64,000 nt of DNA from Lytechinus variegatus (Eukaryota; Echinodermata; Echinoidea; Temnopleuroida; Toxopneustidae). The stretch covers positions 26,240,464 to 26,304,463 of the forward strand of contig NC_054746.1 in assembly GCF_018143015.1 (NCBI RefSeq), written 5' to 3'. Below are positions 10,475 to 35,300 of this stretch, piece after piece. Positions within the stretch are counted from its first letter, which is position 1, and each line of letters opens with the position of its first letter. The notes beneath the pieces were generated by a model. That model saw nothing but the letters and a program-made list of their open reading frames with translations. It searched no databases and was not told the origin of the DNA. The translations under genes were made by a program, and so were the position numbers.

Positions 10475-11098
10475 TTATGGATCCGATTTGATAGTAGAAT
10501 CAGATTTTCTCTCAATTTCAATCTCTCTGGTGGGGATGTCATCGGACTTATCTGACCTCACCATCGGTGCCTCTACTTTCAAAAAGCCATCTTCACTCAA
10601 TATTGCCTTTAACTTTTCGACATCGGTTTCCTGCGGTAGCAAGACGACATTCGAGAAATTTTGCTTTTGATAGTTGCCGCCATCGGTGGACCCCTTCTCC
10701 ATCGCAGCACCGACATGAAGCTCCCTGTCATTAACCAGCTTGATACTGACATCGACCTCGTCGGACTTGAACTTCTCTCCGAGATCGACCACCATTTCGA
10801 AATTACTGACATCTTCCCCCAGAGAGATCTTTCCAAATGAACGGGCGGATTGCTGTGTGAGACTTTGGCTGTCCTCATATCGATTCCACCAGAACGGCTT
10901 GTTAGCGTCCTTGCTCCATAAACGATGCGATCCTGACTTTGACTGGAGCTCATCGCTGATGTCGTACAACTTTTCCATCATACCGAGGTGGTGATCCATC
11001 ATTCTTTTCCAATGTTTCCCAAACATGGCAGGACGATGAATATCTTGACAGACCCTTCGAGAAAGACGAAATGTTGGAAAGAAGCGAACGTGCGACAT
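10475..11098 (-). CDS. Small heat-shock protein (Hsp20/alpha-crystallin family)
   Basis: This is a complete intronless frame of 207 residues with a start and stop. The family consists of ATP-independent chaperones that bind unfolding proteins and form oligomers. The alpha-crystallin domain spans about residues 97-179, running from the FEMVVDLGEKF strand through a long variable loop (about 130-147) to LLPQETDVEKLKAILSEDG and the G-x-L strand GFLKVEAP. An I-x-I type motif (IEI, residues 193-195) follows in the C-terminal tail and in this family docks onto neighbouring subunits. The N-terminal region is rich in His, Met and Trp, including FWWNRY at 69-74. An HSE-like dyad and a TATA box lie upstream. 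Lack of introns is common in heat-inducible sHSPs. The family is clear; the exact paralogue is not. Confidence 0.9.
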   Translation of the reverse strand: MSHVRFFPTFRLSRRVCQDIHRPAMFGKHWKRMMDHHLGMMEKLYDISDELQSKSGSHRLWSKDANKPFWWNRYEDSQSLTQQSARSFGKISLGEDVSNFEMVVDLGEKFKSDEVDVSIKLVNDRELHVGAAMEKGSTDGGNYQKQNFSNVVLLPQETDVEKLKAILSEDGFLKVEAPMVRSDKSDDIPTREIEIERKSDSTIKSDP

Positions 11099-11229
11099 CT
11101 TCTCAGCAAATTATGATATTGTTTCGAGATGTATAGATCGACTTATCTCGTATAATGTCTCTGAGTTGCGTATTTGACTTCGTCAGTTAACTGAAACGCG
11201 GGCTGAAACGTTTTCTTGTTATGCTTCTG

Positions 11230-12769: not shown

Positions 12770-12975
12770 CAGATGGCAAACAGGAGACAAATAATAATAA
12801 TACACAATAGAAAAATTAAACGAATTAACTTAAAAAATAGAGAGAAGGAAAGAAATGAAGAAGAAAGAAAGAAGAGAGAGAGAGAAAGGGGGAGGAGAGA
12901 AAGGAATTAGGAAGGAAGGAAGGAAGGAAGGAGCGGAAGGAAGGAAGGAAGGAAAGAAAGAAAGAAAGAAAGAAG
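12770..12975. repeat. Purine-rich simple repeats (GAAA/GGAA)n
   Basis: Mixed GAAA, GGAA and GAGA runs with no other content. They abut the duplicated 450-bp segment that starts at 12976. Confidence 0.8.
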
Positions 12976-13234
12976 GAAGGAAAGAATTAAAGAAAGAAAA
13001 AAACTTAAAAACTTAAACTTAAAGAAAGAAAAAGAATTACAGAAAGAATTAATAAAGAATTACAGAAATAAGAAAGAAAAAAGTAGTTATATACAGGCCC
13101 AACTAGACAGAGATATAGATAGGCCTATATAGACTGACAGATATAGATAGATAGATATAGATATAGATAGATATATAGATAGATAGATAGGTAGATGGAT
13201 GGATCGATGGATGGATGGATAGATAGATAGATAT
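12976..13234. repeat. Duplicated segment copy A, first part
   Basis: This part matches 26230-26487 almost base for base apart from (GATA)n and (GGAT)n length changes. It is the first half of a ~450-bp unit whose second half resumes at 15802, after the E3 insertion. The unit mixes AAAG-rich sequence with GATA and GGAT microsatellites. The open frames across it, full of Ser-Ile-Tyr-Leu, are microsatellite translations. Confidence 0.8.
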
Positions 13235-15797
13235 GGTCAATTCCAGCGTAACGGACATGACGTTCAGACAAATTTTTGTAATTCAAATGTTTATACAGTA
13301 GAATTAGCAGTCTTTTGATAATTGTTACTGAGCTTATCAGACACATTTAAGTATCAGTTACATACACATAAAATTTCAAATCGTTTCATTGAACAGTTGC
13401 GGAGAAATTGCACTCTTTGTGAGCGTAACGGACATGACACGAAATGGACGAAGCATTTTTACCTCCTATTGCTTATCAAAATTCCTGTGAATTCTTAGAT
13501 TGCATGCACCTGACATTGGTGTTAATTTAACCTTAAGACCATGCTCTATCCATAAAATAGTGTTTAACAACAGTTTTGCAGTGCATTCTGTATTCCTAGC
13601 TCAAAATGTAGCGTAACGGACATGACACACGAAGCGTAACGGACATGACAGTTTTGTCCACTTTTTGTAAGCGAATATAATTATGTTATTACAAGATATG
13701 GTACAAGTCTAATTGTTTACATGTTAAGGCTAGAGGTTAGAGACACATATCATAACTGGTAATCTGTAATATCTCCTATTATTTTGCAATTTGAGAGGGG
13801 GTCTTTTTGTACAATATTTATAAAACAAACAAATATTTAGAAAAATTTATTTTACACCGGTTAACAACAGTTAATGAGTATTTTCCAGTTACTACCATCC
13901 GCCACACCTAATTAAAGGAAAAAAAGTTGATAGAAAAGATTATTTTTTATTCATGCCCTAATATTTGATAATATACTAGCGTAACGGACATGACACCCTT
14001 ACGAAGTGAACTTCATCAGCACTTCTTAGTTTGAAAATGGAAGAAATATCAATAATGAATGTAGTTATGTAATAGCAAAGTACCTTTACTGACACTCTAA
14101 TGAAAAATATGTAGATATTATTAGCAGGTATCATAAATAATAGCTATAGCCTAAGTGATAAGTTTATATTGAATACAACGTTTATCATACCACTACGACA
14201 CACTGAGAAGACCAAATCTCATTTTTTGTGAGAAGAAAACAAAATTTACCAGACCTGTATAAATCCAAGAAGAACATATTATGGAATGTATTGTATGATA
14301 AAGAATATGTACTAGTATTAATGTCAGTTTTAAGATTACAAAAAATGGTATTAAAATTTAATAGCAGTACCTGGAAAGCGGTCTTTCATTATCGATTATG
14401 TATGAGTTGAAAGGTAATCGGAATGCTTGTAAATAGCTTCTGAGATTTTTTTTTCATTCAAAATAACTATCATCCTGAGTATAATCATCCTTTCATCAAA
14501 TCTTGGATGTTCTAAATCTTACAATCTTGCTTGCTGACAAACGTGGCTGTATCTACATGTAATTTCGTTGTATTGTCCGCGCTGCTTGTGTACAATTGAA
14601 GATACATCATTCAAATCGTTATTATGGCTGACCAAAATACTATAACATAATTTATTGATCGTGCCACATTCTTTCCACGGCCCCTTTGCTTTGTGATACT
14701 GCAAAGAAGTGCCACTGTAGATTCATGGATTCATAGAGCTACATGTACATGTACATTATGAAACACAGATATCCGAATACAAACTTGCTTTTAAATGTGA
14801 TCCCATGCCATCACTGAAGAAGTACATGTAGAGGTTGGTGTAAGTCAGATACTTTGAAGTAATATCATCAATGATCATTAATTCACAAGTTGGAGTTTTA
14901 TCATGCTCCAAACTGTCAGTGCAAGAACCTAAGATAATCAAATGTTTGTTCAAACACGAATGATGCAGATTGTGATCTGAGTATGTTGCCAGATCTAGCT
15001 GCATCTTATCCTAATATTATGTAACATACCGTTAATTCTCAGAAAAATCTACCAGAACAAGAGCTGAACTTTCATCATTCACCAACTTCTAAAAATAGCT
15101 TGAATGACATGCAGATTCTAGGAAATATTACATTCAGCTATCCTCAAACAATTGAGACTAACCTCAGTCTGTGACACTGAGTCTAATATTTTGTTTTTGT
15201 AAATGCTGCCATTTGCCATATATAAGGCGTCATGTCCGTTACGCGAATTGTCATGTCCGTTACGCCATTTTTATGAAAATGAGAAATGGTAAGGGAAAAT
15301 GATTGCTACACATGGTAGGGGGTTTAATTCTAACATAGAATCTGAATCTGCAGTACCTTTAGACAAATTTCCTGTAAGCTGTGAAAACTTTAAGTGAAAA
15401 ACGTAACGGACATGACACTGATAATGGTCAAGAAATCACACAAATCTGATGACAGATTTCTGTAAAATTGATGAATGGCATAAAATGTAACAATAATTTT
15501 CTGTTGATTTAAACATTAATCAACTATTCAAAAGTTAAAAGAGACCTCTGGGACCTTGTTTGCTTTTAGTAGAGACAGAAAAGATGAATTGTTCAAAAAT
15601 AGCCACATTTTTTACATTTTGCAATATACTATTCTATTTTTTTGATGATGGAAAAAACTACAAAATTTTATCAATATTGCGATTTTTCTATTGGAAATTG
15701 AGACTTTATAGATTACTTTTTAAGAAAATTTGACTGCTTGAGTGAAATCTGAAACTTCATTTTTTCTCTAAAGTGAACATTTTCCATGGAATTGCCC
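13235..15797. mobile_element. E3: 2.56-kb non-autonomous DNA element, unclassified
   Basis: The boundaries are fixed by comparison with the uninterrupted copy of the host segment at 26230-26679. The insert begins GGTCAATTCCA and ends with the reverse complement GGGCAATTCCA, and it is flanked by ATAT on each side (13231-13234 and 15798-15801) where the empty copy has ATAT once, giving a 4-bp target duplication. Eight copies of GCGTAACGGACATGAC lie inside: forward at 13246, 13423, 13611, 13634, 13979 and (one mismatch) 15401, and reverse at 15229 and 15250. Clustered subterminal motifs of this kind are typical transposase-binding sites. No long frame is present, so it is probably mobilised in trans. 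A 4-bp duplication is known for superfamilies such as Chapaev, Sola and Ginger, but I cannot assign one. Confidence 0.75.
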
Positions 15798-15801
15798 ATA
15801 T

Positions 15802-15987
15802 ATAGATAGGTAGGTGGATGGATGGATGGATGGATGGATAGATAGATAGATGGGCTATATCGACAATACAAGTCATAAGCCCCACTCCGGGGCTCCATTC
15901 CATTCCCAATGGCTCTATTTTCGGGGGGGGGGGGGGTTCTCGGGTTGCTCATTGATCGCATATCGCGTATCGCAAGTCGATGTTGAC
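15802..15987. repeat. Duplicated segment copy A, second part
   Basis: Continues the 450-bp unit after E3 and matches 26488-26679 with only microsatellite and poly-G length changes and one substitution near the end. It ends seven bases before the E1 terminus. Confidence 0.8.
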
Positions 15988-16043
15988 GGGGTCCGGACAG
16001 CCCGACCACCAGACAGCCCGACCCTGGACAGCCCGACCCGCTG

Positions 16044-16078
16044 CCCTGGACAACTCGTCCCGGTCGAGTTGTCCAGGG
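16044..16078. repeat. Terminal hairpin of E1
   Basis: A perfect 14-bp stem with a 7-base loop (TCCCGGT) lies just inside the three terminal tandem repeats. Its mirror lies at the right end. E2 has the same design with the stem GGGACAACTCGG. Confidence 0.75.
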
Positions 16079-17006
16079 TTGGCTCTGAATCGGACAACTC
16101 GACCACTTGAATTCTTCTTCAAAATTTTATGAAATAAAATTTCAAACTTTACTTCAAAAGTATTTTCCCGCATAATCCATGTTTCTTCAATACATTCTCG
16201 ACAGAAAAATTGACATTTCAGTGCATTTTGAGCTATTTTGAAAGAAAATAAAGCGAGTTCCCTTGCAACGAGAATAATCCGATACCGCCGGCGAGCCGTG
16301 TTCATTCAACTTACAACTTGCAAATTTGAGTTGATTTTTCCGTCACTTTACATATTTTAATGGTGAGTGTGTGCTATTTTGTATTTTCATATTCCGTTTT
16401 CACATTTCCTGTACTTATTTAAAGTTATTGCATTTCACAAAACTGATACTTAATGCAAACTTTTTGAGATAGTTCACCTGGAAAGGACACCGATGCGGTG
16501 CTTCGCCTCGCCGGCCGGCCAGCTGGGCGACCGGCTGTGCTGTGATTGTGACTGAGTGAGGCAGTCAGCTCAATTACTAGCTATATGCGAGGTCAACTTA
16601 CTTATTTTAGTTAATTTTCCGTCTCTAGACATATTGCTTATTTTCCAGTGGCGAGAATGCGCTATTTTTGTATTTTTACGCTTCTTCCACATATTAATTT
16701 TTTTATGTCACTAACTAAAAGGAAATAGATTTGAAAATGTCTCAGTAGCCGGCATATGTACATGTAACTAGTTATGAAGTTTACAATTTTTGTAGGAAAG
16801 TCATTGTTTATTTTTGTTCTTGAATAACTATTATTTTTGTTTATTGTTTTCGAAGTTTTGAAGGGCAGTTGGGGGGGGGGGGGGGTTAACAACTGACAAT
16901 AGATTGGGTATTTATAATTATCAAACTTGAATTGTTTATTGAAAAATGAAATGTATTCTGCCGAAATTGATCAAAAACTTAACTTTTTATCAAAATCTAA
17001 GAACTT

Positions 17007-17222
17007 GCTTTTCGTTATCGATTTCTGTCGCATCTTTTTTTAATGCAACATCCATTGGTAACAGTGGGTCTTCTGGAGGATACAAGCACTTGGGCTGTAC
17101 CAGGGATGAGGAGAAGAGGTTTCATACTCGACAAGCGATGGCCTTTCCATTTCTTTCACAGCAGAAATATTACCGAGTACCAATGACTTGGGCATCAGAG
17201 CGGCAGTCCCCTGATCGATGAG
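17007..17222 (+). pseudogene. Exon-like block in E1 left arm, diverged copy
   Basis: This block is more conserved between the E1 arms than the sequence around it and ends with GATGAG followed by a splice-donor-like GTAAAT, matching GATGAG/GTAAGT in the right arm (25000). The right-arm copy is preceded by an acceptor-like CTGTCAG. A 91-codon frame overlaps it (16946-17221), but it is not kept open in the right arm. I do not recognise a product. The matching downstream exon in this arm is decayed and interrupted by a MITE. Confidence 0.25.
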
Positions 17223-17786
17223 GTAAATACAGCTTTATAGATACAATAAATCAATTTTTGCGCACTTCATGCAGGCATATCAAAGTGAAATTTAATTTTT
17301 TTGTATTGTCAAATTCTTTAAAAGAAAGAAAGGACAATTGAATAATGAATTTACTTTTTTTTCTTTATACATTGTTTGAATTGAACAAAAAATTTACTTA
17401 TAGGTTTCGAAAAAGTTATAACATTTCAAATTAATTTTTGGGTATGGTATTGGTAATGCGAAATTTATGTGGATCCTTTATGTTATGTAAATCTTCCAGA
17501 AGATACCAGGTATGGTTCTAGTGTGTTTAGCAAATTAATGTAACTGAGATATATTAAAATTGTATTTGCTTCTAAATTGTTCAAGACAAGGTGAAGATTG
17601 AAAATGGTCTAATTTCTTTTATTAAGAGGTGCAGACTGCAGATCTTCAAATATTTGAAATTACAATAATTTTGTCAATAATTCATTTCATACCCCTTCAT
17701 CTTTCCAGCTGTTTGACTTAGTTGAGACAACATGGATTGCAAACCGTACTTAGCTTGCTTTTATTTATAAAAAAAAATTGTAAGGC

Positions 17787-18374
17787 TGAAAGGACAAGTC
17801 CACTCTAACAAAAAGTTGATTTGAATAAAAAGAGAGAAATCCAACAAGCATAACACTGAAAATTTCATCAAAGTCGGATGTAAAATTAGAAAGTCTTGAC
17901 ATTTTAAAGTTTCGCTTAATTTCACAAAACAGTTATCTGCAAATCCTGGCTGGTATGCAAATGAGGAGACTATGACATTATCCACTCACTATTTCTTTTG
18001 TATTTTATTATATGAAATATTCTAATTTTCTCATTGTCAAGTGATACAACAATTAATTTCTCCCTGAACATGTGAAATTATCATTGTTTAATGCTAATAT
18101 GGTTCAGTCAAGTTAGTCCTTATTGTCAAATCAAATCTATTTTAAAAAATGAAATATTTATTATTCAAACAAAAAAAAATAGTGAGTGATGGGCATCATC
18201 GACTTACTCACCTATTTGTGCATATCACTGTTTTGTGAAAAATAAGCGAAAATTTAAAATGTCATAACTTTCTTATTTTAAATCCGATTTTGATGAAATT
18301 TTTAGCACTATACTAGTTTGATTTTCTCTATGTATTCAAGTTAGCATTTTTCTTTGGTGGACTTAACCTTGAAA
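17787..18374. mobile_element. Palindromic MITE in E1 left arm
   Basis: The two halves are reverse complements. The left half begins AAAGGACAAGTCCACTCTAAC and the right half ends with a matching GGTGGACTTAACCTT. Shared internal landmarks include AACACTGAAAATTTCATCAAA on one side and TTTGATGAAATTTTTAGCACTAT on the other. The element is AT-rich with no coding sequence. It belongs to the same loose family as those at 21394, 24203 and 33636. Confidence 0.65.
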
Positions 18375-19049
18375 GAGCCCTCTACGTAAGTTAGGGTTAA
18401 GTTAGTTGTCATGGTAATCAAATATATATGCAATAAATTTTGAAATGTATATTCTTAAACCAAAAGGGGCAATTAATTATTACATGTTAATTTGTATGGT
18501 TACTATTGTAGTTTTAAGATTGTCTATATTGTTACATTCGCACCCAAAGCAGAGGATATTGTTCTCAATCAGAGTTACAAATCAACAAATATAGTATGGG
18601 CACACATGAATATGTGACTATGTACAAATAGTATACAAATATAGCAGGCTTTAAGGAAGTATAGCAAGAATTATTTGTCTGAAGTTGAACTGGCAATTGC
18701 TTTTTATACTAAGAGGCAAAAGTATGACTGGGCACACATGAATTTGTGAATATATAAATAGTAAACAGATATACCAGGAATGGTGCACTATTTGATTTTC
18801 TTTATGTATGTTTTTTTTTCAACAGCATAACAAGACCATGTTTTGTTATGCTATAAGCCTATACTGTTTGTAAGATATAACAGAAAATTATGTGTTACTT
18901 AGTAATTTTAGTTGTGATCAAGTTTATCACATTGTTACATAGAAAATAAAGAGTCTACTAAAAAGTATTGTGAATATTGGGTTCTATTACTCCCATGTAT
19001 TTTTTTCTGCTGAACATTTCACTGTTAAGTGCTGTGGTGATCAGGTGGA

Positions 19050-19340
19050 CATTTTGGGAGAGATGAAGTTGAAATTGGAGGGATGGAGACGGTGATGTGA
19101 AAAGGATGGTAATGAAAAGTGGGTTGGAGATGAGAAGAAGGATGGAGATGATGAGAGGAGGGATGGGGATGAGAGGGATAGAGATGATGAGAGGAGGCAT
19201 GGAGATGAAAGGAAGGATGGAGATGAGAGGAATAGATGATGAGAGGAGGGATTGAAATTATGAGGGAAAGGATGGAGGGGATGACGATGAGAGATGAAGC
19301 TGAGAGCAGAGATGAGGAGGCGATGGAGATGAGGGGATGT
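19050..19340 (+). repeat. GATG/GAGAGG minisatellite
   Basis: Degenerate repeats of about 30 bp built on GGAGATGATGAGAGGAGGGAT. The complementary strand version occurs at 22910-23215 in the opposite E1 arm. Long frames on both strands (such as 19041-19529 minus and 19236-19595 plus) are simple-repeat translations. Confidence 0.75.
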
Positions 19341-19700
19341 AGAGGAGGAATGGAACATCATCACCAGTTCACCACCAACATCATCTCTATCATCGCCACC
19401 ATCACGATCGCCACAATCATTGCCATCATCATCATCATCACCACCAACATCATTCTCATCCATCATCATAATCATCGCCATCACCACTATCATCATCGCC
19501 ATCATTATTATCACCATAATTTTCATCACATCACCATCATCGCCACCATCATCACAACATCATCCATCATTATTGTCATCGTATCACCAGTATAATCGCC
19601 ATCATAATCATCAGCATCATCATCATGATCACCAATATCATCATCGTCACCGTCATCACCAATGTTCATCATTATCACCATCGCCACCAACATCCTTTTC

Positions 19701-21392
19701 ATCATCTCAGGAATGTTATTGAGAACCTCTTGGAAATGATGCAATCCATTGACTCGATCTCATCAGTGCATGAAGTAGCTGGGTTTATTCAGCTTTGGGT
19801 GCACTGGGGGCCTTGAACTTTTGTAGGGGGCACCAAGATAAATATGTTGTGGGGATAGTCCTGCAGACCAAAGTTTAAGAAAATCATAATTCATTCTCAA
19901 AAACACGATTAGGTTATCTCAAAAGGCCTAAAGTAGGACCGTTACTCTCTTAGTTTCCCTCTTTCGCTTTTTTCTGTTTTTTTTCTTTTTCCCCTTCTTT
20001 TTCCTTTCTCCCCCACTCCACTGTTTCATTCGCTCTGTCTTTCCACTTTTTCTCTATTTCTTTCCCTCCCCTTTTCTCTTCTTCGCTCAAGCCCTACCAA
20101 GATTTTTCGACCACAAAGGAAAATAATCGCTATATATGTGGGCCATAAATATGAATTAATGTACTATTCCATTCATGTCATCAATTTGCTCTAGAATCAA
20201 TTACGTTTTTACTATTCAAATTCTTCAAAGATTTACTCCCTGGTCACCACATTCCCTCATAACATTCTTAAGGGTGTCATTGATATTAAAACCTGATCCG
20301 CTGCCATGTTCTATCCATGTAGGAGTGCAAAATTGATGTTTGAACTAAGAGGGGGGGGGGGGGATTGATGATTGAACTAAGGGGTGCCAAATGATTACCA
20401 AGAAATTGACTGATTAGGCTGATGATGATTATTGAATAATTCATTGAAAAAATGAATGTTTGATCAAGCATATTGCACATTGATTGAATTGATTTATTGA
20501 TAAATTTTTGACAGAAGGATTGATAGGTAAAAGTTGTTGCCCCAATTTTCGGAACTTATCATTAAATTCCGAAAATTCTGCTCTGGACTTCATACGTACA
20601 TGTAAGAGCAATCAGTCTCTCAACAGAAGGGGAGGGCGGGTGAGAGGGAGGTTTTTTTATTATTTTTTTTTTTTTTTGGGGGGGGGGCTAAATGTTCTGT
20701 TGAACCTTATTCCATCAACCTACTTTTCCATCTCACCCTCTATTCTCCCGACTCCCATGAACACATTGCTGAGATCCACATAATAAAGTTAAAATGCTGC
20801 CCCCAAAAATGCAATGTGTGTTGAACTTCACTCATGCATTAAAGTTCAATTTAATAATTTATGAAATTTGCTTTAACAACCAAAACTGGCCACGATTGAT
20901 CATTAATTTATCACAACACTCTTAACTTTGCAGGTTCTAACGGATTTGCCTTTCAAAAACTGACTGAAATTGGAAGTCTGTTTCCTGTCCAGCCAAATTT
21001 TCATACCCTATGTTTAAGTGGGAAGTGCTCGCTCAACACATTTTGGTGTCATTTGAAAGTTGGCTTTATCGTATATGTAGGTCCCCCCCCCCCAAGTAAT
21101 ATATTTTTTATTCGGCAGCCATGTCAAAAGTTGATAGATTTTGGGGAGCTACCATCAAGTAGATAAAACTAGTATTGTACCCAGGGTCGTATCTAGGGGG
21201 CACATTCAGGGGGCGCAAATAAAGAAATGAAAAAATAATGCAAAGGAATAAAAGTGCAGAAAAGGGATACCACTGAACTGAAGGAAATTAATACCCTGTC
21301 TTGTTATTCCCATGGTAATGCCGTTTCCAACACATTTAGAAAATGAATCTTGCATGTCTTTATCAAAAGATGAATATTCGTGCCACTTTTTG
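19701..21392. other. E1 central region, left part, no gene
   Basis: No gene is seen. There is a pyrimidine-rich stretch (19950-20090), several G homopolymers (20350, 20680) and fragments that look like worn termini of other elements, for example GGGTCGTATCTAGGGGGCAC at about 21184. Confidence 0.4.
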
Positions 21393-21393
21393 A

Positions 21394-21980
21394 TTAAAGG
21401 GGTGGTCCAGGCTGAAGGTATTTAGAGTTTAATAAATAGAGTAGAATTCACTGCCAATTTCATCAAAAACGGACAACAGATAGCAAAGTTATCGAATTTT
21501 AAAGTTTAGTAATATTTTGTAAAAATAGTCGTCATGAATATTCATTAGGTGGGCTGATGATGTCACATCTCCACTTGTTCTTTTGTATTTTATTATATGA
21601 AATTAGGTTTATTCAAATAAATGTTTATTCCTCCAAGAAATAGAAAAACTGTATTGACAACAATTACTGATTTAGTACATAAGATATTTATTGCTGCAAC
21701 TTATTTAATCATAAGGGAGACATATTATTCTCACAAGTATGAAAATATGAAAAAAATATGATTTTATGTAATAATATAAGAAAACAGAAAGTGGAGATGT
21801 GACATCATCAGCTCGCCTAATGAATATTCATGACGACTGTTTTCACAAAATATTGCTAAACTTTAAACTTCAATAACTTTATTATTTGTTATCCGATTTT
21901 GATGAAATTTTCAGCGTTTTGCACAGTGAATTCTACTCTGTGTATTAAGATATATTTTCAGCCTGGACCACCCCTTTAAT
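21394..21980. mobile_element. Palindromic MITE, TTAAAGGGGTGG ends
   Basis: Near-perfect inverted halves: the left begins ATTAAAGGGGTGGTCCAGGC and the right ends with its complement. Matched internal blocks include TGATGTCACATCTCCAC and its complement near 21555 and 21795. TTAA or TA at both edges is consistent with a target duplication of 2 or 4 bp, but the palindromic edge makes this ambiguous. No coding sequence. Confidence 0.7.
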
Positions 21981-23264
21981 GATAATCATACCAACTCTCT
22001 ACAAGAATTCCAACAAACAGCTTTAGCTTGAAATATTCCTTTTGTCAATCGCAAATATGCAAGCTGCGACTTTGAATCTTGACATTTTACTTTTCATTAA
22101 TTCTCATTAATAGTTATGAAATACATTATTATTTATCTGGTTCCCTTTTCAAAGCGTTTTCAACACGCGCTGATTTGATAAGGGAGATATAAATCCTATT
22201 CATTCATTTTTACTAACAATGATTGAAATGTCATTTTTTGGGTGATATGTAAAGTCCATCTTACAGTAAGAGATGAATAATGTGACATAAGTACTAGTAT
22301 CTGTGTATGAAATCACTGATAAAATAATTATGATGACGATCAAGCTGTTGTGGTGATGATGATGATGATGTGATAAAGATAATTATGGACTGGTGATTGT
22401 TATGAGATGGGAGGTGGTGATGATAGTGATGGTGGTGGTGATGTTAGTGATGACGATGATGGTAATGAATCTAGTGGTGTTGATTATGACGATAGTAGAT
22501 GGTGTTGGTAATGAACAGTGGAATACAGGTGGTGGGGGATCATGGTCTTGGGGGCAAGAGCACCCCCCCCCTCAAAAAAGAAGATAAAATACCAAAAAAA
22601 GAATGAAAGAGAAACGAAAAGAGAGAAGAGTTTTAGTATGATGTCATAATAAAAAAAATGAGTTTGTGTAATAAAAATGTCAAAAATTTTACTCATTCAC
22701 AATTAAAAAAAAAATAACTTTGGCATGATGGGCCATATCTTACCCCTCAAAATCTTTCACTCATTACGCCAATGATAATGATGAAGTTTGTGGTGATGAT
22801 GATGTCATAATGACGATGATGGTAATGATATTGATGATGAAGTTGGTGGAGGCAATGTTTGTGATGATGATCACCCCCCCCCCTGCCCTTTTATCTTTCT
22901 TCTCTCATTATCAACACGCCGCCTGACATCTCCACCCCCATTATCTCCATTCCCGTCTTCTCCAACCATTTTCGCATCTCCATCCCTATTTCATTTCAAT
23001 CTCTCCTCTCATCTCCACCCCCTACTCCTGTCAACCCTTCCACATCATCTCCATCCATCCTTGCCTCATCCCATCCCTCCTCTCATCATCTCCATCCACT
23101 CATCATCCACACCCCTCTCAACTCCATCACTCCTCGTCATGACCATCCCACCTTTCATCTCCATCCCCCCCCCCCCATCTTCATCTCTCCAATCATCTCC
23201 ATCTGATTACCATGTGACACAACATTTGCTCCTGCGACAATTGCCCCAGGCTTAATTTTGTCTA

Positions 23265-23385
23265 AAGCCCTTTTCACAATTGGCTGCGCAACTACTTACG
23301 ACCCTTCACAGTTGCAATTCTGTGCAACATATATTGTGACCAAGTGATCGCAAACAATCGCACGAGCAATTGTGAAAGCCCCTTA
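23265..23385. mobile_element. ~120-bp MITE nested in an older repeat
   Basis: The left end GCCCTTTTCACAATTGGC pairs with the right end GCAATTGTGAAAGCCCC. It splits a repeat (TCCTGCGACAATTGC...CTTAATTT, then AGGTTCAGGGTTGCAATATGG) that resembles the dispersed repeat found uninterrupted in two golgin-84 introns at about 39170 and 41535. Confidence 0.5.
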
Positions 23386-23936
23386 AGATAGAGGTTCAGG
23401 GTTGCAATATGGTTTTAAGTTAGGTTTAGACCTTGCTGGTTGAAGCTGTTCATAAGATTATGGTGTGGAATTTGCCAGAGCAAATGTCATGGAACCCGTC
23501 ACCGCAGCTCTCAATAAAAGGTAAATATTCAGCGAGAAAAGAGATACAAAATAGTGCAAGAACCAAATATTCAAAATACTTCTTTGGAGTTAAGTGGGTT
23601 TTATTAAGTAACATTAAGGTAAACTTGATCAGATCTTAAATTACATAGTAACACATATTGAACTTCAGTGTATATAAAACATATTATATCCTACATTTAT
23701 ACTGGTTCAAAATTTCAAATAGGATTACATTACCACAATTATGATAATACTCTTATGTAGTATAAATATGACACAATTCCAACTGGGAACAATATCCTCT
23801 GCTCTTGGTGTTTATGTAAAGCTAAGGACGATCTTAAAATTACATTAGTGCCAATATAAATTAACATTTATCCAACAATTGCACTTTCAGGAATATACAA
23901 CCTGTTATACGTTACTTTATTTGGTTTCCATGGCAA

Positions 23937-24045
23937 TTACATGATCCCTAACTTAGCTGGAGGGATTTTCAACCCTTCCTCATCTCTTATTTTGTCACAC
24001 ATAAACTGGCCATACAGAGCTTGCAATTCAGGTGGTCTCAAAGAG
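23937..24045 (-). pseudogene. Terminal-exon-like block in E1 right arm
   Basis: On the minus strand an acceptor (CTTTCCAG) is followed by a 109-nt open segment ending in a stop. It encodes 35 residues rich in charged residues, beginning SLRPPELQALYGQF and ending IPPAKLGIM. The left arm has a decayed version split by a MITE. If spliced from the donor at 25000, the junction would create ATG-AGC and a 37-residue frame. I do not recognise the protein. It could be a captured host gene fragment or an element-encoded peptide, and it may not be expressed. Confidence 0.25.
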
Positions 24046-24202
24046 CTGGAAAGATAGAAATAAAATAAAGTAATTTCAACTATTTGAAGCTCTGCACCTC
24101 TTTTGCTACTGAAACAAATCAAACCATTTCAACCTTCAGTTTAGAAGCAAATACATTTTTTAAATATATTAAAGTTAAATTAATTGCAACTAATTCAATA
24201 AT

Positions 24203-24700
24203 AAAGGAAAGTTCACTCTGAAAAAAAAGTTGGTCGTAAAAATAGCAGAAAAGTAATACCAAAAAAATATTGGTGAATGTATGAGGAAAAGTTTCAAAAC
24301 GTTATTCGAATTTTAAGTTTTAGATTTGTGGCGTCATAAACGAGCAGCTGCCCCATATGTTTTGTAATATAAAATTCATGAATTCAATTTTTTTCAATGG
24401 TTCCTGATGACTTATTTTTCTTTTCTTTTCAGGTTTGGGTGTGAAGTGTTTTGTCTTTTGAATATATACAAAAGGCATAGTAAAACCAGTTTCAATTTTC
24501 TTAGAAAATTACAATTTCTTGACTTTTTACCATTTATTATGCAGAAATGCTGCTCGCACATGACATCACAAATCCAATAATTGAAATTCTAATAACTTTT
24601 CAATTCTTTGATGGATTTTCCTCAAACCTTTGGCAATATTTTTTATTTTTTCTGCTGTTTTTTACAATTAACTTTTTGTCAGGGTGAACTTCCCCTTCAA
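24203..24700. mobile_element. Palindromic MITE in E1 right arm
   Basis: The left end AAAGGAAAGTTCACTCTGA is mirrored by the right end, whose complement reads AAGGGGAAGTTCACCCTGAC. It interrupts the E1 arm at a position where the left arm has no insertion, so it arrived after the arms formed. No coding sequence. Confidence 0.6.
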
Positions 24701-24999
24701 GCTCACTTGAACGATACTTGGTATCATCTAGATGTGTACGACATAAATGTTCCTCATGAATTAAGCATAACCCCTACATACCCAAAATTAATTTAGAATG
24801 TTACAACTTCTACTTAACCTAAACATGTAGTAGTTACATTTTTAAGAAGCAATTTTAAATTTTTATGAATACAATGTATATAAAAAAATTGTTCTTTCTT
24901 TCATTCAAAGAATTTGAAAATACCAAAAAATAAAAATTGAAATTTGATGTGCCTGCATGAAGTTCACAAATTTGATACTATCTAAGAAGCTGTACTTAC

Positions 25000-25215
25000 C
25001 TCATCGATCAAGGGACTGCTGCTCTGATGCCCAAGTCATTAGAACTCGGTATCATTTCTGCTCATGAAAGAAATGGAAAGGCCATCGCTTGTCGAGTATG
25101 AAACCTCTTCTCCTCATCCCGGGTGTAGGTTGTTGGGACCAGCCCAAGTGCTTGTATCCTCCAGAAGACCCGTTGTTTCCAGTGGAATTTGCACTAAAAA
25201 AAGCTGTGACAGATA
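25000..25215 (-). pseudogene. Exon-like block in E1 right arm
   Basis: Counterpart of 17007-17222, bounded by an acceptor-like CTGTCAG and a consensus donor GAG/GTAAGTAC. No frame is open across the whole block, so it would be a 5' UTR-type exon or a decayed coding exon. Its conservation between arms exceeds that of neighbouring intron-like sequence. Confidence 0.25.
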
Positions 25216-26229
25216 CTGACAGGTAAAAAAATAAGAAACATGTTTTTCGATAACGAAAAGCAAGTTTTACAATTTAGATTTTGATAAAAACATTTTTTTC
25301 AATAAACTATTCCATATTGTAAACTTCATAACTTACAAACTGAGACATTTTCAAATCTATTTCCTTAATTGGTTTAGATGTTGGTTGGAAGCACCCCCCC
25401 CCCCCCCCCCCCCCCCCCCCACAAAGGGGCGTCAAGGATGGTTACTTTAAAATTTGGGAACGGCATTCCGACCACGCAGTCAATCAATTTCCTAAAATCA
25501 GCTTAATAGTGACATTAAAAAAACTTTTTAATAAGTAGAAGTGTAGAAATGCAAAAATAGCACACTCTCGCCATTGGAAAATGGGAAATATGTCAAGAGA
25601 CGGAAAAATTAACTAAAATAAGTTGACCTCGCATAGCTAGTTGAGCTGACTGCCTCACTCAGTCACAATCACAGCACAGCCGGTCGCCCAGCTGGCCGGC
25701 CGGCGAGGCGAAGCACCGCATCGGTGTCCTTTCCAGGTGAACTATCTCAAAAAGTTTGCATTAAGTATCAGTTTTGTGAAATGCAATAACTTTAAATAAG
25801 TACAGGAAATGTGAAAACGGAATATGAAAATACAAAATAGCACACACTCACCATTAAAATATGTAAAGTGACGGAAAAATCAACTCAAATTTGCAAGTTG
25901 TAAGTTGAATGAACACGGCTCGCCGGCCGGCGGTATCGGATTATTCTCGTTGCAAGGGAACTCGCTTTATTTTCTTTCAAAATAGCTCAAAATGCACTGA
26001 AATGTCAATTTTTCTGTCGAGAATGTATTGAAGAAACATGGATTATGCGGGAAAATACTTTTGAAGTAAAGTTTGAAATTTTATTTCATGAAATTTTGAA
26101 GAAGAATTCAAGTGGTCGAGTTGTCCGATTCAGAGCCAACCCTGGACAACTCGACCGGGACGAGTTGTCCAGGGCAGCGGGTCGGGCTGTCCAGGGTCGG
26201 GCTGTCCGGTGGTCGGGCTGTCCCGGAAT

Positions 26230-26679
26230 GAAGGAAAGAATTAAAGAAAGAAAAAAACTTAAAAACTTAAACTTAAAGAAAGAAAAAGAATTACAGAAAG
26301 AATTAATAAAGAATTACAGAAATAAGAAAGAAAAAAGTAGTTATATACAGGCCCAACTAGACAGAGATATAGATAGGCCTATATAGACTGACAGATATAG
26401 ATAGATAGATATAGATATAGATAGATATATAGATAGATAGATAGATAGGTAGATGGATGGATCGATGGATGGATGGATAGATAGATAGATATATAGATAG
26501 GTAGGTGGATGGATGGATGGATGGATGGATAGATAGATGGGCTATATCGACAATACAAGTCATAAGCCCCACTCCGGGGCTCCATTCCATTCCCAATGGC
26601 TCTATTTTCGGGGGGGGGGGGGGGGGGTTCTCGGGTTGCTCATTGATCGCATATCGCGTATCGCAAGTCGATGGTGACG
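26230..26679. repeat. Duplicated segment copy B (empty site for E3)
   Basis: The uninterrupted 450-bp copy of the unit at 12976-13234 plus 15802-15987. It lies directly between the right end of E1 and the left flank of E2. It differs from copy A only in (GATA)n and poly-G lengths and an occasional base, so the duplication is recent or reflects two haplotypes placed in tandem by assembly. Confidence 0.8.
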
Positions 26680-27339
26680 TATACAAAATCATGGGGACGG
26701 GACAACTCGGACCACGGGACATCTCGGACCGCGGGCCGAGTTGTCCCACCCAGTACGAGATTTTTTTTCCACAAGTTTGCGTCTATTTTTCCGTAATTTC
26801 GAAATTTCTTGTAAAGATTTTCTAGAGATATGGTCTGATGGTAATGTTCTTCACTTTCTATTACTTTTTTTTCGCTGAAATAAAAAAAAAAGTGTAATTT
26901 TAGGCGTTTTTCGACAGCTCGCGATTCCCATAGGCGCGCGTGTATTAACTGTGTCGGTGCTCGGCTCGGCCTAAGGCTCGGCCCGCTCAACAACTGACTT
27001 GATTTTGTGATCATTTCTCCTCAAAGTACCACTTTTATCGCAAAAGATGGACTTTGTTGTATTCCATTACCTCCATTTTCTCATCACAAGGATAAAATTT
27101 TGATCAAGTGTTTCACCTTTTTCTCTCTGGTCGCAAGAACGAACAACCGATGAACGGTCCGCAGCTCTTCATCGTAATTCTCCGTAGCTCGGCCGCCTAA
27201 ACTGGCGGGGTGGGATTTAGACCGAATCCACAATGGAAGTGGGCGTGCACAGCAAAGAGCTGAGCTTGACTGAGTGAGAGAGAGTGAACTAGAGTTTGAA
27301 GCTTGGCAGTCTTTTTTTGTAAATATATATTTTTCAATT

Positions 27340-28200
27340 CTTTCTATATTGATTTTCCCTGGTTTCGAGCTCTAAGATTGTAATGATATAATTATGCTTC
27401 AATTTCTTTGACTGAGTGTGACTATGGTGTGGATGTTTGAGTTGCTCAAAAATATTTTTACGTGGGTGGGGGCTCGGGGCGATTTCACTCTTGCCCCGAA
27501 ATGCGAAAAAAATATATTCGGGGTGTAGCTGTGTGGGCATGCCGGGCTGAGGCTAGCCTTCAATAATTTTTTTTTTTTTGGAGAGGGGGGGGGGGGCTTA
27601 ATTTTTCACTTTAAATTGATCATTTTTAGGCCTTTTTTTTCCATTTTATTTTTAATATTGAATTTCCGTGGTGTAGAGTTGAGTTTTAAGTTGCAATAAT
27701 CAATATGCTTTAATTTCTTTGACTTTGAATGTGACTGTGGTGTGGATGTTTGAGTCGAACAAAAAATACTTTTACGTGGGTGGGGGCTTGGGGCGATTTC
27801 ACTCCTGCTAAATGCGAAAACTATTCGGGAAGTAGCTGTGTGGGCATGCCGGGCTGAGGGTAGCCCTCAATAAAAAAATGTTTTTTTTGGGGGGGGCTTA
27901 ATTTTTCACTTTAAATTTATTATTTTTAGGCCTATTTTTTGTACATTCTATTTTTCATATTGAGTTTCCCTGGTGTAGAGAGTTGAGTTTTAAGTTGCAA
28001 TAATTATTAATATGCTTCAGTTTCTTTGATTTTGAGTGTGACTGTGGTGTGGATGTTTGAGCCGAACAAAAAATATGTGGATGGGGGCTCCGAGCATTTT
28101 CACTCCTGCCCCCGAAATGTGAAAATGTTCTAGGTGTATCTGTGTGGGCATGCCAATTTCATTTTTAATTTTTATATTAAGTTTCCTTTGTGTAGAGAGC
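27340..28200. repeat. Tandem units of about 305 bp inside E2
   Basis: Recurring landmarks TTTCCCTGGT, TTTAATTTCTTTGACT and GTGGTGTGGATGTTTGAG appear at about 27355, 27665 and 27965, with a shorter last copy near 28170. Each unit ends in a G-rich run. The first unit extends into the left arm of E2. Confidence 0.7.
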
Positions 28201-28204
28201 AGAG

Positions 28205-28490
28205 TTTTGGATATAGGGTAAAAGGGACGACGATGTGAGGGATGGCGATGATATAGCATACCGGCGATAACGAGGGGTGGGCAATGATGAGAGGGACAAA
28301 GGGAAAGAGATGGAGATGAGGATAAAGGGATGGCGATGATAAGGGGTGGGCCTTGATGATGAGAGGGAAGAGGAGGTGCATGAAGGATATAAATAAGAGA
28401 GATGATGATGATGACTCTTGATAAGAGGGGTGCATGAGATGGTGAGAAGGACGAGGATGTGAGGGATGATTATGGGAGGAAATCGGGGGG
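28205..28490. repeat. GATG/GAGAGG minisatellite in E2
   Basis: Degenerate GATGAGAGGG-type repeats similar to those in the E1 arms. The minus-strand frames over it (28017-28259 and 28172-28567) are repeat translations. Confidence 0.6.
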
Positions 28491-29383
28491 GGGACGTGTC
28501 CCCCTACCAAAAATAAGGGGACACAATACCAAATGTCCACCCTACTATTTTTCTTCATGGAGAACAAAATAATGAATCATTTTTAGGTAAAAATATTTTT
28601 GAGCAACTCAAACATCCACACCAGTCACACTCAGTCAAAGAAATTGAAGCATAATTATATCATTACAATATTAGAGCTCGAAACCAGGAAAAATCAAATA
28701 GAAAGAATTGAAAAATATATATTTACAAAAAAAGGCAGAGCCTATACGACACTGCCAAGCTTCAAACTCTAGTTCACTCTCTCTCACTCAGTCAAGCTCA
28801 GCTCTTTGCTGTGCACGCCCACTTCCATTGTGGATTCGGTCTGAATCCCACCCCGCCAGTTTAGGCGGCCGAGCTACGGAGAATTACGATGAAGAGCAGC
28901 GGACCGTTCATCGGTTGTTCGTTCTTGCGACCAGAGAGAAAAAGGTGAAAAACTTGATCAAAATCGTGCAAATACACCAAATTTTATCCTTGTGATGAGA
29001 AAATGGAGGTAATGGAATACAACAAAGTCCATCTTTTGCGATAAAAGTGGTACTTTGAGGAGAAATGATCACAAAATCAAGTCAGTTATTGAGCGGGGCC
29101 GAGCCGAGCACCGACACAGTTAATACACGCGCGCCTATGGGAATCGCGAGCTGTCGAAAAACGCCTAAAATTACACTTTTTTTTTTATTTCAGCGAAAAA
29201 AAAGTAATAGAAAGTGAAGAACATTACCATCAGACCATATCTCTAGAAAATCTTTACAAGAAATTTCGAAATTACGGAAAAATAGACGCAAACTTGTGGA
29301 AAAAAAATCTCGTACTGGGTGGGACAACTCGGCCCGCGGTCCGAGATGTCCCGTGGTCCGAGTTGTCCCTGATTCAAAATCAT

Positions 29384-32269: not shown

Positions 32270-32308
32270 GTACAACAAGCTGGGCAATAGTTGAAAATAT
32301 TTTTGAGC
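32270..32308 (+). other. 5' UTR part of golgin-84 first coding exon
   Basis: A strong acceptor (TTATTACAG) precedes position 32270, and 39 untranslated bases lead to the ATG at 32309. An upstream exon must therefore exist. An in-frame TTG at 32291 is not a likely start; the protein aligned to vertebrate golgin-84 starts at the ATG. Confidence 0.6.
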
Positions 32309-35300
32309 ATGGCGTGGGTTTTAAAAGGTGCAGAAACCTTCCTCAACAACTTGGATCAGTCCGCATCCCAAGCAATAGGAAGTAAAGATGAGGAAAAAGG
32401 CTCCAGACAGGGACAACTAATGCATCAGAGTCTTCCAGCAGATTCCAGACACTTCTCATCTGCTTCTTCGGCATCAGTTTCACAAAGTCCCATCACACCT
32501 ATGAACCTTTCTGCTACAGACCTAGCTGGCAGTGCTAACATAAAAAGAACTTCAAGCGAGAGTGCAATATCATCATCCCCTCTAGCTGGGCAGCAGGCAC
32601 AAAGAGCAAGGACTCCAACCTCTGCAACCAGTAAATCAAGGAAGGAAGACGATGATGAAAAACTTTTTGAATTCTTAAATAGCCCTTCCACGTCTTCTCA
32701 AGAGAAGAGGAAGAAATCTAATGGGAATACGAGCGGCCGGCATTCAAGACAATCCAGCACCTCTTCAAATATTTCTATTAAAAGTGCTAGAACTGAGAGT
32801 AGCATTGCTACCAACGCTGGCTTTGTTGTCATTCCACATCACCAGCAAGGTAACTATTTTTATCTGGAATGATCTGTTTTCAAATATTTGATTAACCCTA
32901 TCTAGGCCGGGGGGGCCCCCTCAACAAATTGTGCAATATTTTTGCCGCGCGAAATTTTTTGACTGCGCCACTCGCTGACATTTTACTTTCAAGTCTTGCG
33001 CACATTTTGAGACCAATTTTGCGTCACCCGGGTACGTGGTTCCGAAATAACGCAACATTATGTAAGTGCATGTCAGACCAAAAATTGCTCAAAAACGTGA
33101 TTTTGTGTACAATGCAAGTTGTGTTTTCAACCAAAATTCATAAATGCATGATTATTTTTAGTTTTGCAGGTCTAAATGTGATTATTTTATGCTTTTTATG
33201 ATCACAGAAGAGTCCCCAACAAATTTCATTGAAAAAACAATGAAAAACAAAAGGTCAAAAAACAAAGAAATACATAAGAAATTGCAAAAAACAATATAAT
33301 ACATAAGAAAATGATTTGATATCGCAATTTTTTTCATGTACACTTGCTAAGAACACCACAAAGAGTTTCTATACCAAGAATTAGTACATTTGGAGTTTTA
33401 TTTAGGAGTTAGAGGAAAAAGTATGATTTCGCATACTAATTATGCATAATTAGCATAATCACGTAATAGCAATTCGCATGAAATGAATTACTATACGATC
33501 TTGTAGATTATGTCCCAGGCAATCCGCGTGCCAATTTTGGCGCGTTCGACGGCCAAGATCTTAGGGGGGGGGGCCTCCTAGGCCCCCCCCCCCGGCCATA
33601 TGAACTCCCAAAATACCCCGGCCTAGAAAGGGTTAAAGGTTAAGTCCACCCTAGAAAAATGGTGATTTGAAATTGAATCAGTAGAAATATCAAACAAGTG
33701 TAACACTGAAAATTTCATCAAAATTGGATGTTTTGGAAGAAAGTTATGACATTTTGGGGTTTCGCTTATTTTTCAGTAAACAGATGTACATGTATGTACA
33801 ACTCCATCTCAGTGGTATGCAAATGAAATAATTTGATGATGTCCCTCACTCACTATTTTGTTTTTTATTTTTGAAAATGCAAATTTCATTTTTTTTTACA
33901 GATTTGGCAAAAAAAGGCCAACTTGACTGAACCACAAAATGGTAATTCCACATGTTCAGGGAGCAATAAAACTTTGTTTCACATGACAGTGAGGAAAAAA
34001 TAAAATATTACATATTCACTTTAATGAAATACAATAGAAATAGTGAGTGTGTGATGTCATTATCCTGTCTTTTGCATACTGACAAGATGTGTATATAAAT
34101 GTTTTGTTGGAAACTTTAAAATGTTATAACTTTCTTATTTTACATCCAAATTTGATTGAATTTTCAGTGTTATATTTGTTCGATTTTGTTGTCTTTTTAT
34201 TCAAATCAACTTTGAGGCAGCCTTATCCTTTAATGTACTGAGTGCTTTAGTTTTCTTTGATTGCGTTTGATGCATGCTAAATATATAAATAATATTCAAT
34301 CTTTCACTTAATTTTGCAAAAAAATGTAAGCTCTGAATAAGTAAAAATTACACTGTTAAAAAGATTTGAGAGAATACCAAAAATAAAATGCTGTGTTCCT
34401 GTTGGCTACCTTGAAGGTGTAAAATTGAAGTATTCCAAATCGTAGTGATATCATTAAAAAACTCTGATGATTAACTATAATAATCATGTTGATTTTTCTG
34501 AACCTCAAATAAGAGGCATTTGTCCACTTTTTTTTCTGAAAATATCATGGAATAATTTCAATCACATGATTTGGTTAGGCACGAGTGTGCAAGAAACTGA
34601 AGAATTTGAAAATTAGTGCATTTGGGAAGTTCTTTTTCTCAGATTTTGAAGGTTTGTTCTACATGTAGCAATTGTCAGAAGCCTCATTTAAAGGTTTCCT
34701 GTTTTACAGAAGAGCACCAAGAATCCAGTGAGCCGAACAGCAATGATACCTCGCCTGGTGAAGTACCAGCAGAGACCATACCAGGGCCACTCCATGAAAA
34801 TCCTCAGTCACAGCAGCTCTCATCGTTGGAGCTTGAGAATAAGCTTCTTCGTCAAGAAGTCTCTTCTCTCAATCATGAGATGACATCAGCCCTAGAGCGC
34901 ACCAAGAAAGCCAACAGTGGTAAGCCCCGCATTCCAGCTTGTCCTGTGTTCTGATTGTTGGCGCAAGGGCTGTTTGATAAGATACTGAAGTCTGTAATGA
35001 CCACAATCCTGATTAATTTGCAGGTTAAAGACAATAATAGTGAAATTTATCAACAACCATTGTTTAGTCCATTCTGTTTTCTACTCATGTAAATTGGTAA
35101 GGCCCTGTGCGCTCCAGTATTGGAAATACAATCTGGTTTACGAAGGAACACCCATTTAAGTCTAAATCTAAATGTAGATAAATGAGCTTTGCATGGTAGA
35201 TGATCACTCCATCTTGGCCCCTTTATAGACACATTTTGAAATAAATACTGCCATCAATTTACAATTAACCATCATGATCTTACTCATCAGCTTATCATAT

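What the first reader, a model, noticed from the sequence alone, without database searches (positions are those of the whole stretch)
15995..29369. E1 and E2: a family of fold-back elements with tandem-repeat, hairpin-tipped ends
Seen in sequence: E1 (10.2 kb) ends in three 15-bp repeats GGACAGCCCGACC-NN and then a perfect 14-bp hairpin containing GGACAACTCG. E2 (2.67 kb) ends in two 17-bp repeats GGGACAACTCGG/GGGACATCTCGG and closes with CCGAGTTGTCCC, so its tip folds too. Both share the core GGACA-N-CYCG, long inverted arms and no recognisable transposase. Tandem repeats inside terminal inverted repeats are known from fold-back, Galileo and Rehavkus-type elements, but I do not recognise these termini. 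Inference: one undescribed or little-described family whose transposase binds the tip repeats.
Basis: partly seen in the sequence, partly recalled or inferred. Interest (0 to 1): 0.75.

Follow-up and report, generated by a model that had tools for sequence, protein, structure and literature searches.

The report
Two sea-urchin fold-back transposon families
The two structures are copies of two families of mobile DNA in a sea urchin, with long mirror-image arms and no recognised gene of their own, which share the same small end module and so are probably moved by the same still unidentified enzyme; this is a well-drawn example of a kind known since the 1980s.

Summary
E1 (15988-26230) and E2 (26693-29375) have long near-perfect inverted arms, tandem GGACA-N-CYCG units and a head-to-head unit pair that can fold. 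Both are repeated genome-wide: an E2 tip pattern gives 70 matches against 0 reversed controls, an E1 unit 369 against 6. In 33 tabulated elements (31 besides these two) each end is a 7-nt cap before GGACA; the two caps of an element differ in 33 of 33, and 22 of 33 have an 8-bp (17) or 9-bp (5) target duplication. E1 and E2 share the tip but not the arms. No transposase was found inside. The host is a sea urchin, where a fold-back transposon was published in 1983. The same tip plan is published for Tm1, a Mutator/Phantom-type family (PMC3169594), so a MULE-type transposase acting in trans is my best guess. A Merlin lead was followed; it stays open but weak. The window E1 lacks a short duplication: a ~455-bp direct repeat flanks it and its right cap looks shortened, which suggests aberrant joining of one end.

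The parts
15988..26230 (.). E1: fold-back element with its two caps, about 10.2 kb
   Evidence: Inverted arms; ends placed by 12 other whole copies
15988..15994 (+). E1 cap A, GGGGTCC, not part of the inverted repeat
15995..16038 (+). E1 outer units (three, 16 and 15 bp apart)
16044..16078 (.). E1 left head-to-head unit pair, 14-bp stem with 7-nt loop
   Evidence: (D17)
26140..26174 (.). E1 right head-to-head unit pair
   Evidence: D17
26183..26223 (-). E1 outer units, right end
26224..26230 (-). E1 cap B position; reads CATTCCG where 9 of the 12 other copies read GGTTCCG, so the outer four nt are probably lost
26693..29375 (.). E2: fold-back element with caps, 2.68 kb, an internally deleted copy of a family whose longer copies are about 5.2-6.9 kb
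26693..26699 (+). E2 cap A, GGGGACG
26700..26748 (.). E2 left tip: two units 17 bp apart plus the head-to-head unit
29320..29368 (.). E2 right tip, mirror of the left
29369..29375 (-). E2 cap B (GAATCAG read inward)
26685..26692 (+). Left target duplication of E2, AAAATCAT
29376..29383 (+). Right target duplication of E2, AAAATCAT
12972..13234 (+). Left copy, first part, of the ~455-bp direct duplication around E1 (98% to 26226-26492)
15798..15988 (+). Left copy, second part (95% to 26489-26679); ends at E1 cap A
26226..26679 (+). Right copy of the duplication; starts at the E1 right end and runs to 13 bp before E2

Best explanation
E1 and E2 are copies of two non-autonomous fold-back (TIR) DNA transposon families of a sea urchin. 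Each element has two non-equivalent ends: a 7-nt cap (E1 GGGGTCC and mostly GGTTCCG; E2 GGGGACG and GAATCAG), then GGACA-N-CYCG units in tandem, then an inverted unit that makes a head-to-head pair, then long inverted arms without recognised genes. Shown: repeat families, exact ends, 8- or 9-bp target duplications, no recognised transposase domain in what was tested, derivatives reduced to tips. Inferred: a transposase made elsewhere in the genome binds the GGACA units at both ends, cuts outside the caps and inserts with an 8-9-bp stagger (cut-and-paste); because the tip module is shared, one enzyme may serve both families. Guess: that enzyme is of the Mutator/Phantom (MULE) type, because Tm1 has the same tip plan and one of its classes encodes such a transposase. 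The interior is free to change, which explains E2 copies from 6.9 kb down to about 180 bp.
For: Genome-wide repetition with reversed-pattern controls: 371 v 46, 369 v 6, 410 v 0 per strand for head-to-head pairs, overlapping matches included, 70 v 0, 154 v 2 for other tip classes together. Ends: 33 of 33 elements in the table have two different caps, one GGGG-type and one other; at a 7-nt cap the 8-bp flank match averages 0.64 (E1) and 0.68 (E2) against 0.29 and 0.31 for shuffled pairings (largest of 500: 0.44 for both); 22 of 33 show a duplication: 13 perfect 8-bp, 4 at 7/8, 3 perfect 9-bp, 2 at 8/9. E2 copies are about 95% alike. No transposase: of frames of 130 aa or more, the two longest (392 and 415 aa, in g44 and L019) look by eye like nested reverse transcriptase and many others are repetitive; ten smaller ORFs gave no Pfam match at its curated cut-off (best E 0.006); none of the 31 PF10551 and 51 PF12762 places falls inside an element read, compared by eye. 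Copies reduced to tips: about 180 bp (L059, flanks match at 6 of 8) and a 28-bp remnant with a perfect 8-bp duplication (L005). Tip plan equals Tm1: asymmetric 7-bp motifs, GGA, 13-15-bp repeats, 8-10-bp duplications, MULE transposase in one class (PMC3169594, section 5 and part 1 of section 11 read, plus passages). E1 and E2 tips lie within 25 kb in 3 pairs, 0.19 expected, P about 0.001; within 200 kb in 5, 1.5 expected, P 0.017 (the window pair is one of them).
Against: No autonomous copy with these tips was found, so the transposase class is not shown. None of the 21 MULE hits tested (of 31) lies within 25 kb of a tip, though only 0.2 was expected by chance, while Merlin hits do. The commonest duplication is 8 bp, whereas Tm1 most often has 9. 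E1 and E2 have no arm homology, so a shared enzyme rests on the tip alone. The E1-E2 closeness is not significant at 15 kb (1 pair, P 0.11). 11 of 33 elements show no duplication that I accept. Only ten ORFs of two copies were searched against Pfam.
Confidence: 0.72

Rival explanations
1. The elements are moved by a Merlin (IS1595-type) transposase rather than a MULE one.
For: Merlin makes 8- or 9-bp duplications and has 5'-GG ends (PMC8101967, passages). The genome holds 51 PF12762 hits. One, an open Merlin frame (L057, PF12762 1.3e-18), lies 1.0 kb inward of an E2-like tip at C2:75306396; P about 0.02 for one within 2 kb. Within 25 kb there are 3 Merlin-tip pairs, 0.25 expected, P about 0.003, two of them with this same Merlin hit.
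Against: The sequence just inside that tip belongs to an unrelated abundant repeat: of 40 further scored hits of a 305-base query (2325 candidates, the rest not scored) none reaches the start of the tip; they begin at query position 13-35. No right tip with the exact matching duplication was found on C2 nearby, and 75309401 onward could not be read. The E2 B cap begins GA, not GG. Only 22 of 51 Merlin hits were tested against tips.
Confidence: 0.15
2. E1 and E2 use different transposases; the common tip is convergence or an exchanged module.
For: Arms share nothing detectable; caps differ; unit spacing is 15-16 bp in E1 and 17 bp in E2.
Against: Same 7-nt cap length, same GGACA-N-CYCG core, same head-to-head unit, same 8/9-bp duplication.
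Confidence: 0.2
3. They are TU elements: orthologues of the families described in Strongylocentrotus purpuratus.
For: Sea urchin host; a sea-urchin fold-back transposon was published in 1983 (cited in PMC4079207, passages). From recall only: TU outer domains are 15-bp tandem repeats and TU makes 8-bp duplications.
Against: No TU sequence could be compared; the two TU papers that I asked for are not held.
Confidence: 0.4
4. The ~455-bp direct repeat around the window E1 is an older tandem duplication into which E1 happened to insert, with later loss at the right edge, rather than a product of transposition.
For: The flanks are rich in microsatellite, which duplicates easily. That the copies meet E1 at its two ends follows partly from E1 lying between them.
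Against: There is no 8-bp duplication at E1 and cap B seems to have lost four nt. L038 shows a similarly shortened cap with flanks that are inverted copies of each other.
Confidence: 0.4

Closest known systems
TU fold-back transposons of Strongylocentrotus purpuratus (1983; cited in PMC4079207, the papers themselves not held)
   Same: Sea urchin host; long inverted repeats (title of the 1983 paper); from recall, 15-bp outer tandem repeats and 8-bp target duplications
   Different: Sequence identity not testable here; hairpin unit and asymmetric caps not known to me for TU
Tm1 Mutator/fold-back family of Meloidogyne (PMC3169594: section 5, part 1 of section 11 and passages read)
   Same: Asymmetric 7-bp end motifs outside the inverted repeat, then GGA, then tandem repeats of 13-15 bp; 8-10-bp duplications in 45 of 53; mostly non-autonomous, many small derivatives
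   Different: Different repeat sequence; no head-to-head unit mentioned in what I read; mostly 9-bp duplications; one class encodes a Phantom-like MULE transposase, none found here; the elements whose length I saw are 1.1-2.6 kb
Tetris of Drosophila virilis (PMC4079207, passages)
   Same: Fold-back structure, repeats in the TIR, 8-9-bp duplications in the three complete copies, no conserved open reading frame, placed in Mutator by inference
   Different: 220-type repeats, other host, other sequence
Rehavkus (PMC6446971, passages)
   Same: MULE-related, minisatellite near an end
   Different: 9-bp duplications, PHD-finger transposase, arthropod and annelid hosts
Galileo (PMC3573991, passages)
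   Same: Long internally repetitive TIRs; tandem repeats in them hold secondary transposase binding sites
   Different: 7-bp duplications, P-element transposase

Membership tests
Fold-back transposons (structural class) | Long terminal inverted repeats with tandem repeats in their outer part | tested here: met
Fold-back transposons (structural class) | Dispersed copies with target duplications | tested here: met
   22 of 33
TU elements | Sea urchin host | tested here: met
   Bindin PF02084, 4 matches, best E 4e-66; that bindin is echinoid is recalled
TU elements | Sequence identity of the outer repeat with TU1 | not testable with these tools
   TU papers not held; no collection of eukaryote elements on hand
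Tm1/Phantom-type MULE | Asymmetric 7-bp end motifs followed by GGA | tested here: met
   33 of 33 elements, cap then GGACA; Tm1
Tm1/Phantom-type MULE | Tandem repeats of 13-15 bp | tested here: inconclusive
   E1 15-16 bp, E2 17 bp
Tm1/Phantom-type MULE | 8-10-bp duplications, mostly 9 | tested here: inconclusive
   8 in 17 and 9 in 5 of 33
Tm1/Phantom-type MULE | A related element encodes a MULE transposase | tested here: inconclusive
   None found: none of 31 PF10551 hits lies in an element read; 21 of 31 tested against 106 tips, none within 25 kb, 0.2 expected by chance; divergent or unlisted tips not covered
Merlin | 8- or 9-bp duplications | tested here: met
   definition
Merlin | Ends 5'-GG | tested here: not met
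   E2 B cap begins GA in all 20 E2 elements of the table; the usual E1 caps do begin GG
Merlin | IS1595-type transposase in an element with these tips | tested here: inconclusive
   One place 1 kb from a tip, then weakened
Rehavkus | 9-bp duplications | tested here: not met
   8 bp is the mode; definition
Galileo / P | 7-bp duplications (Galileo) | tested here: not met
   At the 7-nt cap, 7-bp matches are at or near shuffle level: E1 0.25 v 0.25, E2 0.34 v 0.28 with shuffle maximum 0.36
hAT | Constant 8-bp duplications (recalled) | tested here: not met
   3 perfect 9-bp duplications

The most novel reading that the evidence does not exclude
The two ends are functionally different, and the B end can act alone after losing its outer four nt: in the window it was joined to DNA ~455 bp upstream of the E1 insertion point on a copy without E1, making a ~455-bp direct duplication, and in L038 a shortened B end faces an inverted copy of about 25 bp of flank. 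Fold-back elements of this capped type would then be a natural source of flank duplications and inverted duplications by one-ended or sister-chromatid transposition, aimed at sites near other members (E1 and E2 left ends map 14 bp apart on the same ancestral sequence).
Probability: 0.2. Interest if true: 0.6.

Novelty: new member of a known kind. Interest (0 to 1): 0.36.

Why it matters
The families give an exact tip plan (cap, unit, head-to-head unit) shared by two otherwise unrelated fold-back elements, so the question of what moves sea-urchin fold-back transposons becomes a concrete search: find the transposase gene between the same caps. The match in plan to Tm1 suggests that capped fold-back ends recur across animals. 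The flank duplication at E1 points to a way in which such elements may reshape the DNA around them.

Tried and rejected
Rfam on the whole window at gathering thresholds: 0 matches, 4227 families. Pfam on ten ORFs (seven of one E2 copy, L011, and three of one E1 copy, L039): nothing at a curated cut-off, best E 0.006. MULE search PF10551: 31 hits, none inside an element read. Merlin search PF12762: 51 hits, one next to a tip; followed through and judged weak because the DNA inside the tip is an unrelated abundant repeat and no right tip was found; the proximity result nevertheless favours it and is told under the rival. Exact search for the Merlin-side tip GGACAACTCGGACCTAG: one place only. A further tip class, GGGGGCC+GGACAGCCCG (L029-L031 read), lies inside a larger repeat shared on both sides of the tip, so it is not used as an element end. 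Arm homogenisation within elements: only modest (within > mean between in 12 of 13 E1 at 550 bp and 15 of 17 E2 at 600 bp, but 8 of 17 E2 at 270 bp), so not claimed. PDB by sequence for the Merlin fragment: none at E 0.1. Papers: full-text searches for TU/fold-back/sea urchin, Rehavkus (25), Lytechinus genomes (42, a guess at the species, not pursued), Merlin with fold-back (67) and Phantom (85) listed no open paper that I recognised as describing these elements; that is no proof that they are unpublished. Repbase and Dfam could not be searched.

Dropped before counts: L021 (compound of two elements) left out of the end table, so 19 of 20 E2 loci plus the window are in it; L056 (part of an E1 copy) not used; L005, L059 and L029-L031 not in the table; L021, L022, L023 and L028 left out. 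The elements read are those on contigs C1-C3 whose two ends both showed in the capped listings, so they are not a random sample. In one search I tested 36 E1 tips, 55 of 70 E2 tips, 15 E2-variant tips, 22 of 51 Merlin and 21 of 31 MULE hits, those on C1-C9 (E1 and variant tips only as far as the capped list went; a tandem Merlin cluster on C8 counted once; a few C9 hits left out); the lengths of C4-C9 used for randomisation were my rough guesses, and the window pair itself is among the three close E1-E2 pairs.
Full report
What was checked. Both structures are present as described, with ends a few bases further out. GGACANCYCG occurs 17 times in the window against 0.14 expected, all within about 115 bases of the four ends. 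The arms are 99-100% complementary in their outer stretches, and E1 keeps patchy, mostly weaker inverted similarity further in. The tips can fold.

Where it comes from. The window lies in an 870-Mb genome with 33 contigs. Bindin, a sperm protein of sea urchins (recalled), is found with E 4e-66, so the host is a sea urchin; the species is not known to me.

Families. Patterns give 371 against 46 reversed-control matches for the E2-type unit, 369 against 6 for the E1 unit, 410 per strand against 0 for the head-to-head pair, and 70 against 0 for cap A plus unit of E2. I read 12 further whole E1 copies, one more in part (L056), and 20 loci with E2 copies. E1 copies between their outermost units run from 5.4 to 16.4 kb, some with nested insertions; stretches of the window E1 align with 7-12 of 12 others at 84-94%. 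The longer E2 copies are about 5.2-6.9 kb and about 95% alike; the window E2 lacks most of the middle. The window E1 and three E2 copies have no common arm sequence; short stretches in the middle and a minisatellite type are shared.

Ends. All 33 elements in the table (13 E1, 20 E2, window included) have two different caps of 7 nt before GGACA: E1 GGGGTCC and, in 9 of 13, GGTTCCG (one each GGGTCCG, TATTCCG, GATGCCG, CATTCCG); E2 GGGGACG (GGGGTCG in two) and GAATCAG. With that cap length, and not with 5, 6 or 8, the flanks match over 8 bp far above shuffled pairings. Thirteen perfect 8-bp duplications, four at 7/8, three perfect 9-bp and two at 8/9 make 22 of 33; 11 have none that I accept. The window E2 has AAAATCAT on both sides.

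Derivatives. Three E2 copies of about 0.7 kb (L022, L023, L028), one of about 180 bp made of tips only (L059, flanks matching at 6 of 8) and a 28-bp remnant between perfect 8-bp duplications (L005) show that copies can lose nearly everything but the tips. This fits, but does not prove, that the tips are what the transposase needs.

Transposase. None was recognised inside. Of frames of 130 aa or more, the two longest (392 and 415 aa) look by eye like nested reverse transcriptase; the others are at most 265 aa and many are repetitive. Ten smaller ORFs gave no Pfam match at a curated cut-off. None of 31 MULE or 51 Merlin hits lies within an element read (compared by eye). A Merlin frame 1 kb from a lone E2-like tip looked promising, and Merlin hits are nearer to tips than chance (3 pairs within 25 kb, 0.25 expected, two with this one hit; MULE 0 pairs, 0.2 expected). 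But the DNA just inside that tip is an abundant repeat, none of 40 further scored hits (of 2325 candidates) reaches the start of the tip, and no right end was seen. I hold it as a weak lead.

Comparison. PMC3169594 (section 5 and part 1 of section 11 read) describes Tm1: asymmetric 7-bp motifs outside the inverted repeat, GGA, tandem 13-15-bp repeats, 8-10-bp duplications and, in one class, a Phantom-like MULE transposase. The tip plan of E1 and E2 is the same, with other sequences, long arms and an added inverted unit. On that ground I favour a MULE-type enzyme, as a guess. A fold-back transposon of a sea urchin was published in 1983 (cited in PMC4079207, passages); I could not compare sequences, so membership in TU is open, and I file these as new members of a known kind.

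The E1 site. Instead of a short duplication, E1 lies between two copies of a ~455-bp segment (left 12972-13234 plus 15798-15988, split by a 2.56-kb insert; right 26226-26679; 98% and 95%), and cap B seems to have lost its outer four nt. On the shared sequence the E1 and E2 left ends are 14 bp apart. L038 has a similarly shortened cap B with flanks that are inverted copies of each other over about 25 bp (by eye). A joining of the B end to nearby DNA on a chromatid without E1 explains both, but an older tandem duplication is not excluded. E1 and E2 tips lie within 25 kb of each other three times, 0.19 expected (P about 0.001), but at 15 kb once (P 0.11); one of the three is this window.

Score. 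The anatomy is clear and the families are real, but the kind is known and the transposase remains unidentified.

Noticed in passing
window 13235-15797: A 2.56-kb insertion splits the left copy of the 455-bp duplication; its edges GGTCAATTCC and GGAATTGCCC look like short inverted ends (by eye), so probably another transposon.
   Followed up: partly
L029, L030, L031 (C1:690773, 2791917, 10475259): A repeat carries GGGGGCC+GGACAGCCCGACCC in its interior, with homology on both sides; the same cap class recurs often in the list. Perhaps an old relative of E1 frozen into a larger repeat.
   Followed up: partly
L057-L058 (C2:75307300-75309400): Merlin-type transposase frame beside a tandem array with a unit of roughly 240 bp (by eye).
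   Followed up: partly
C3:36712479, C5:45207371, C15:28645679: Three MULE hits with the same score and 494-aa open frames: possibly a recently active MULE family.
   Followed up: no
C8:32784114-32796853: Cluster of IS1595-type (Merlin) domain hits in about 13 kb; tandem copies or a domesticated gene family.
   Followed up: no
window 21388-21985 (inside E1): Palindromic stretch with TCCGATTTTGATGAAATTT, of a kind also seen in L029-L031: probably a nested, abundant repeat.
   Followed up: partly
L010 and L048 (C1:87387145-87403181): Another E2-E1 neighbour pair, with 61 bp between their caps, like the pair in the window (462 bp).
   Followed up: yes
E1 tips on C6, C7, C9: Three pairs of E1 tips lie within 200 kb of each other, 0.44 expected, P 0.0065 (rough contig lengths): perhaps local hopping.
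   Followed up: partly
window 10475-11110 (-) and 32291-32872 (+): Frames that look by eye like a small heat-shock protein and the N-terminus of a golgin: probable host genes.
   Followed up: no
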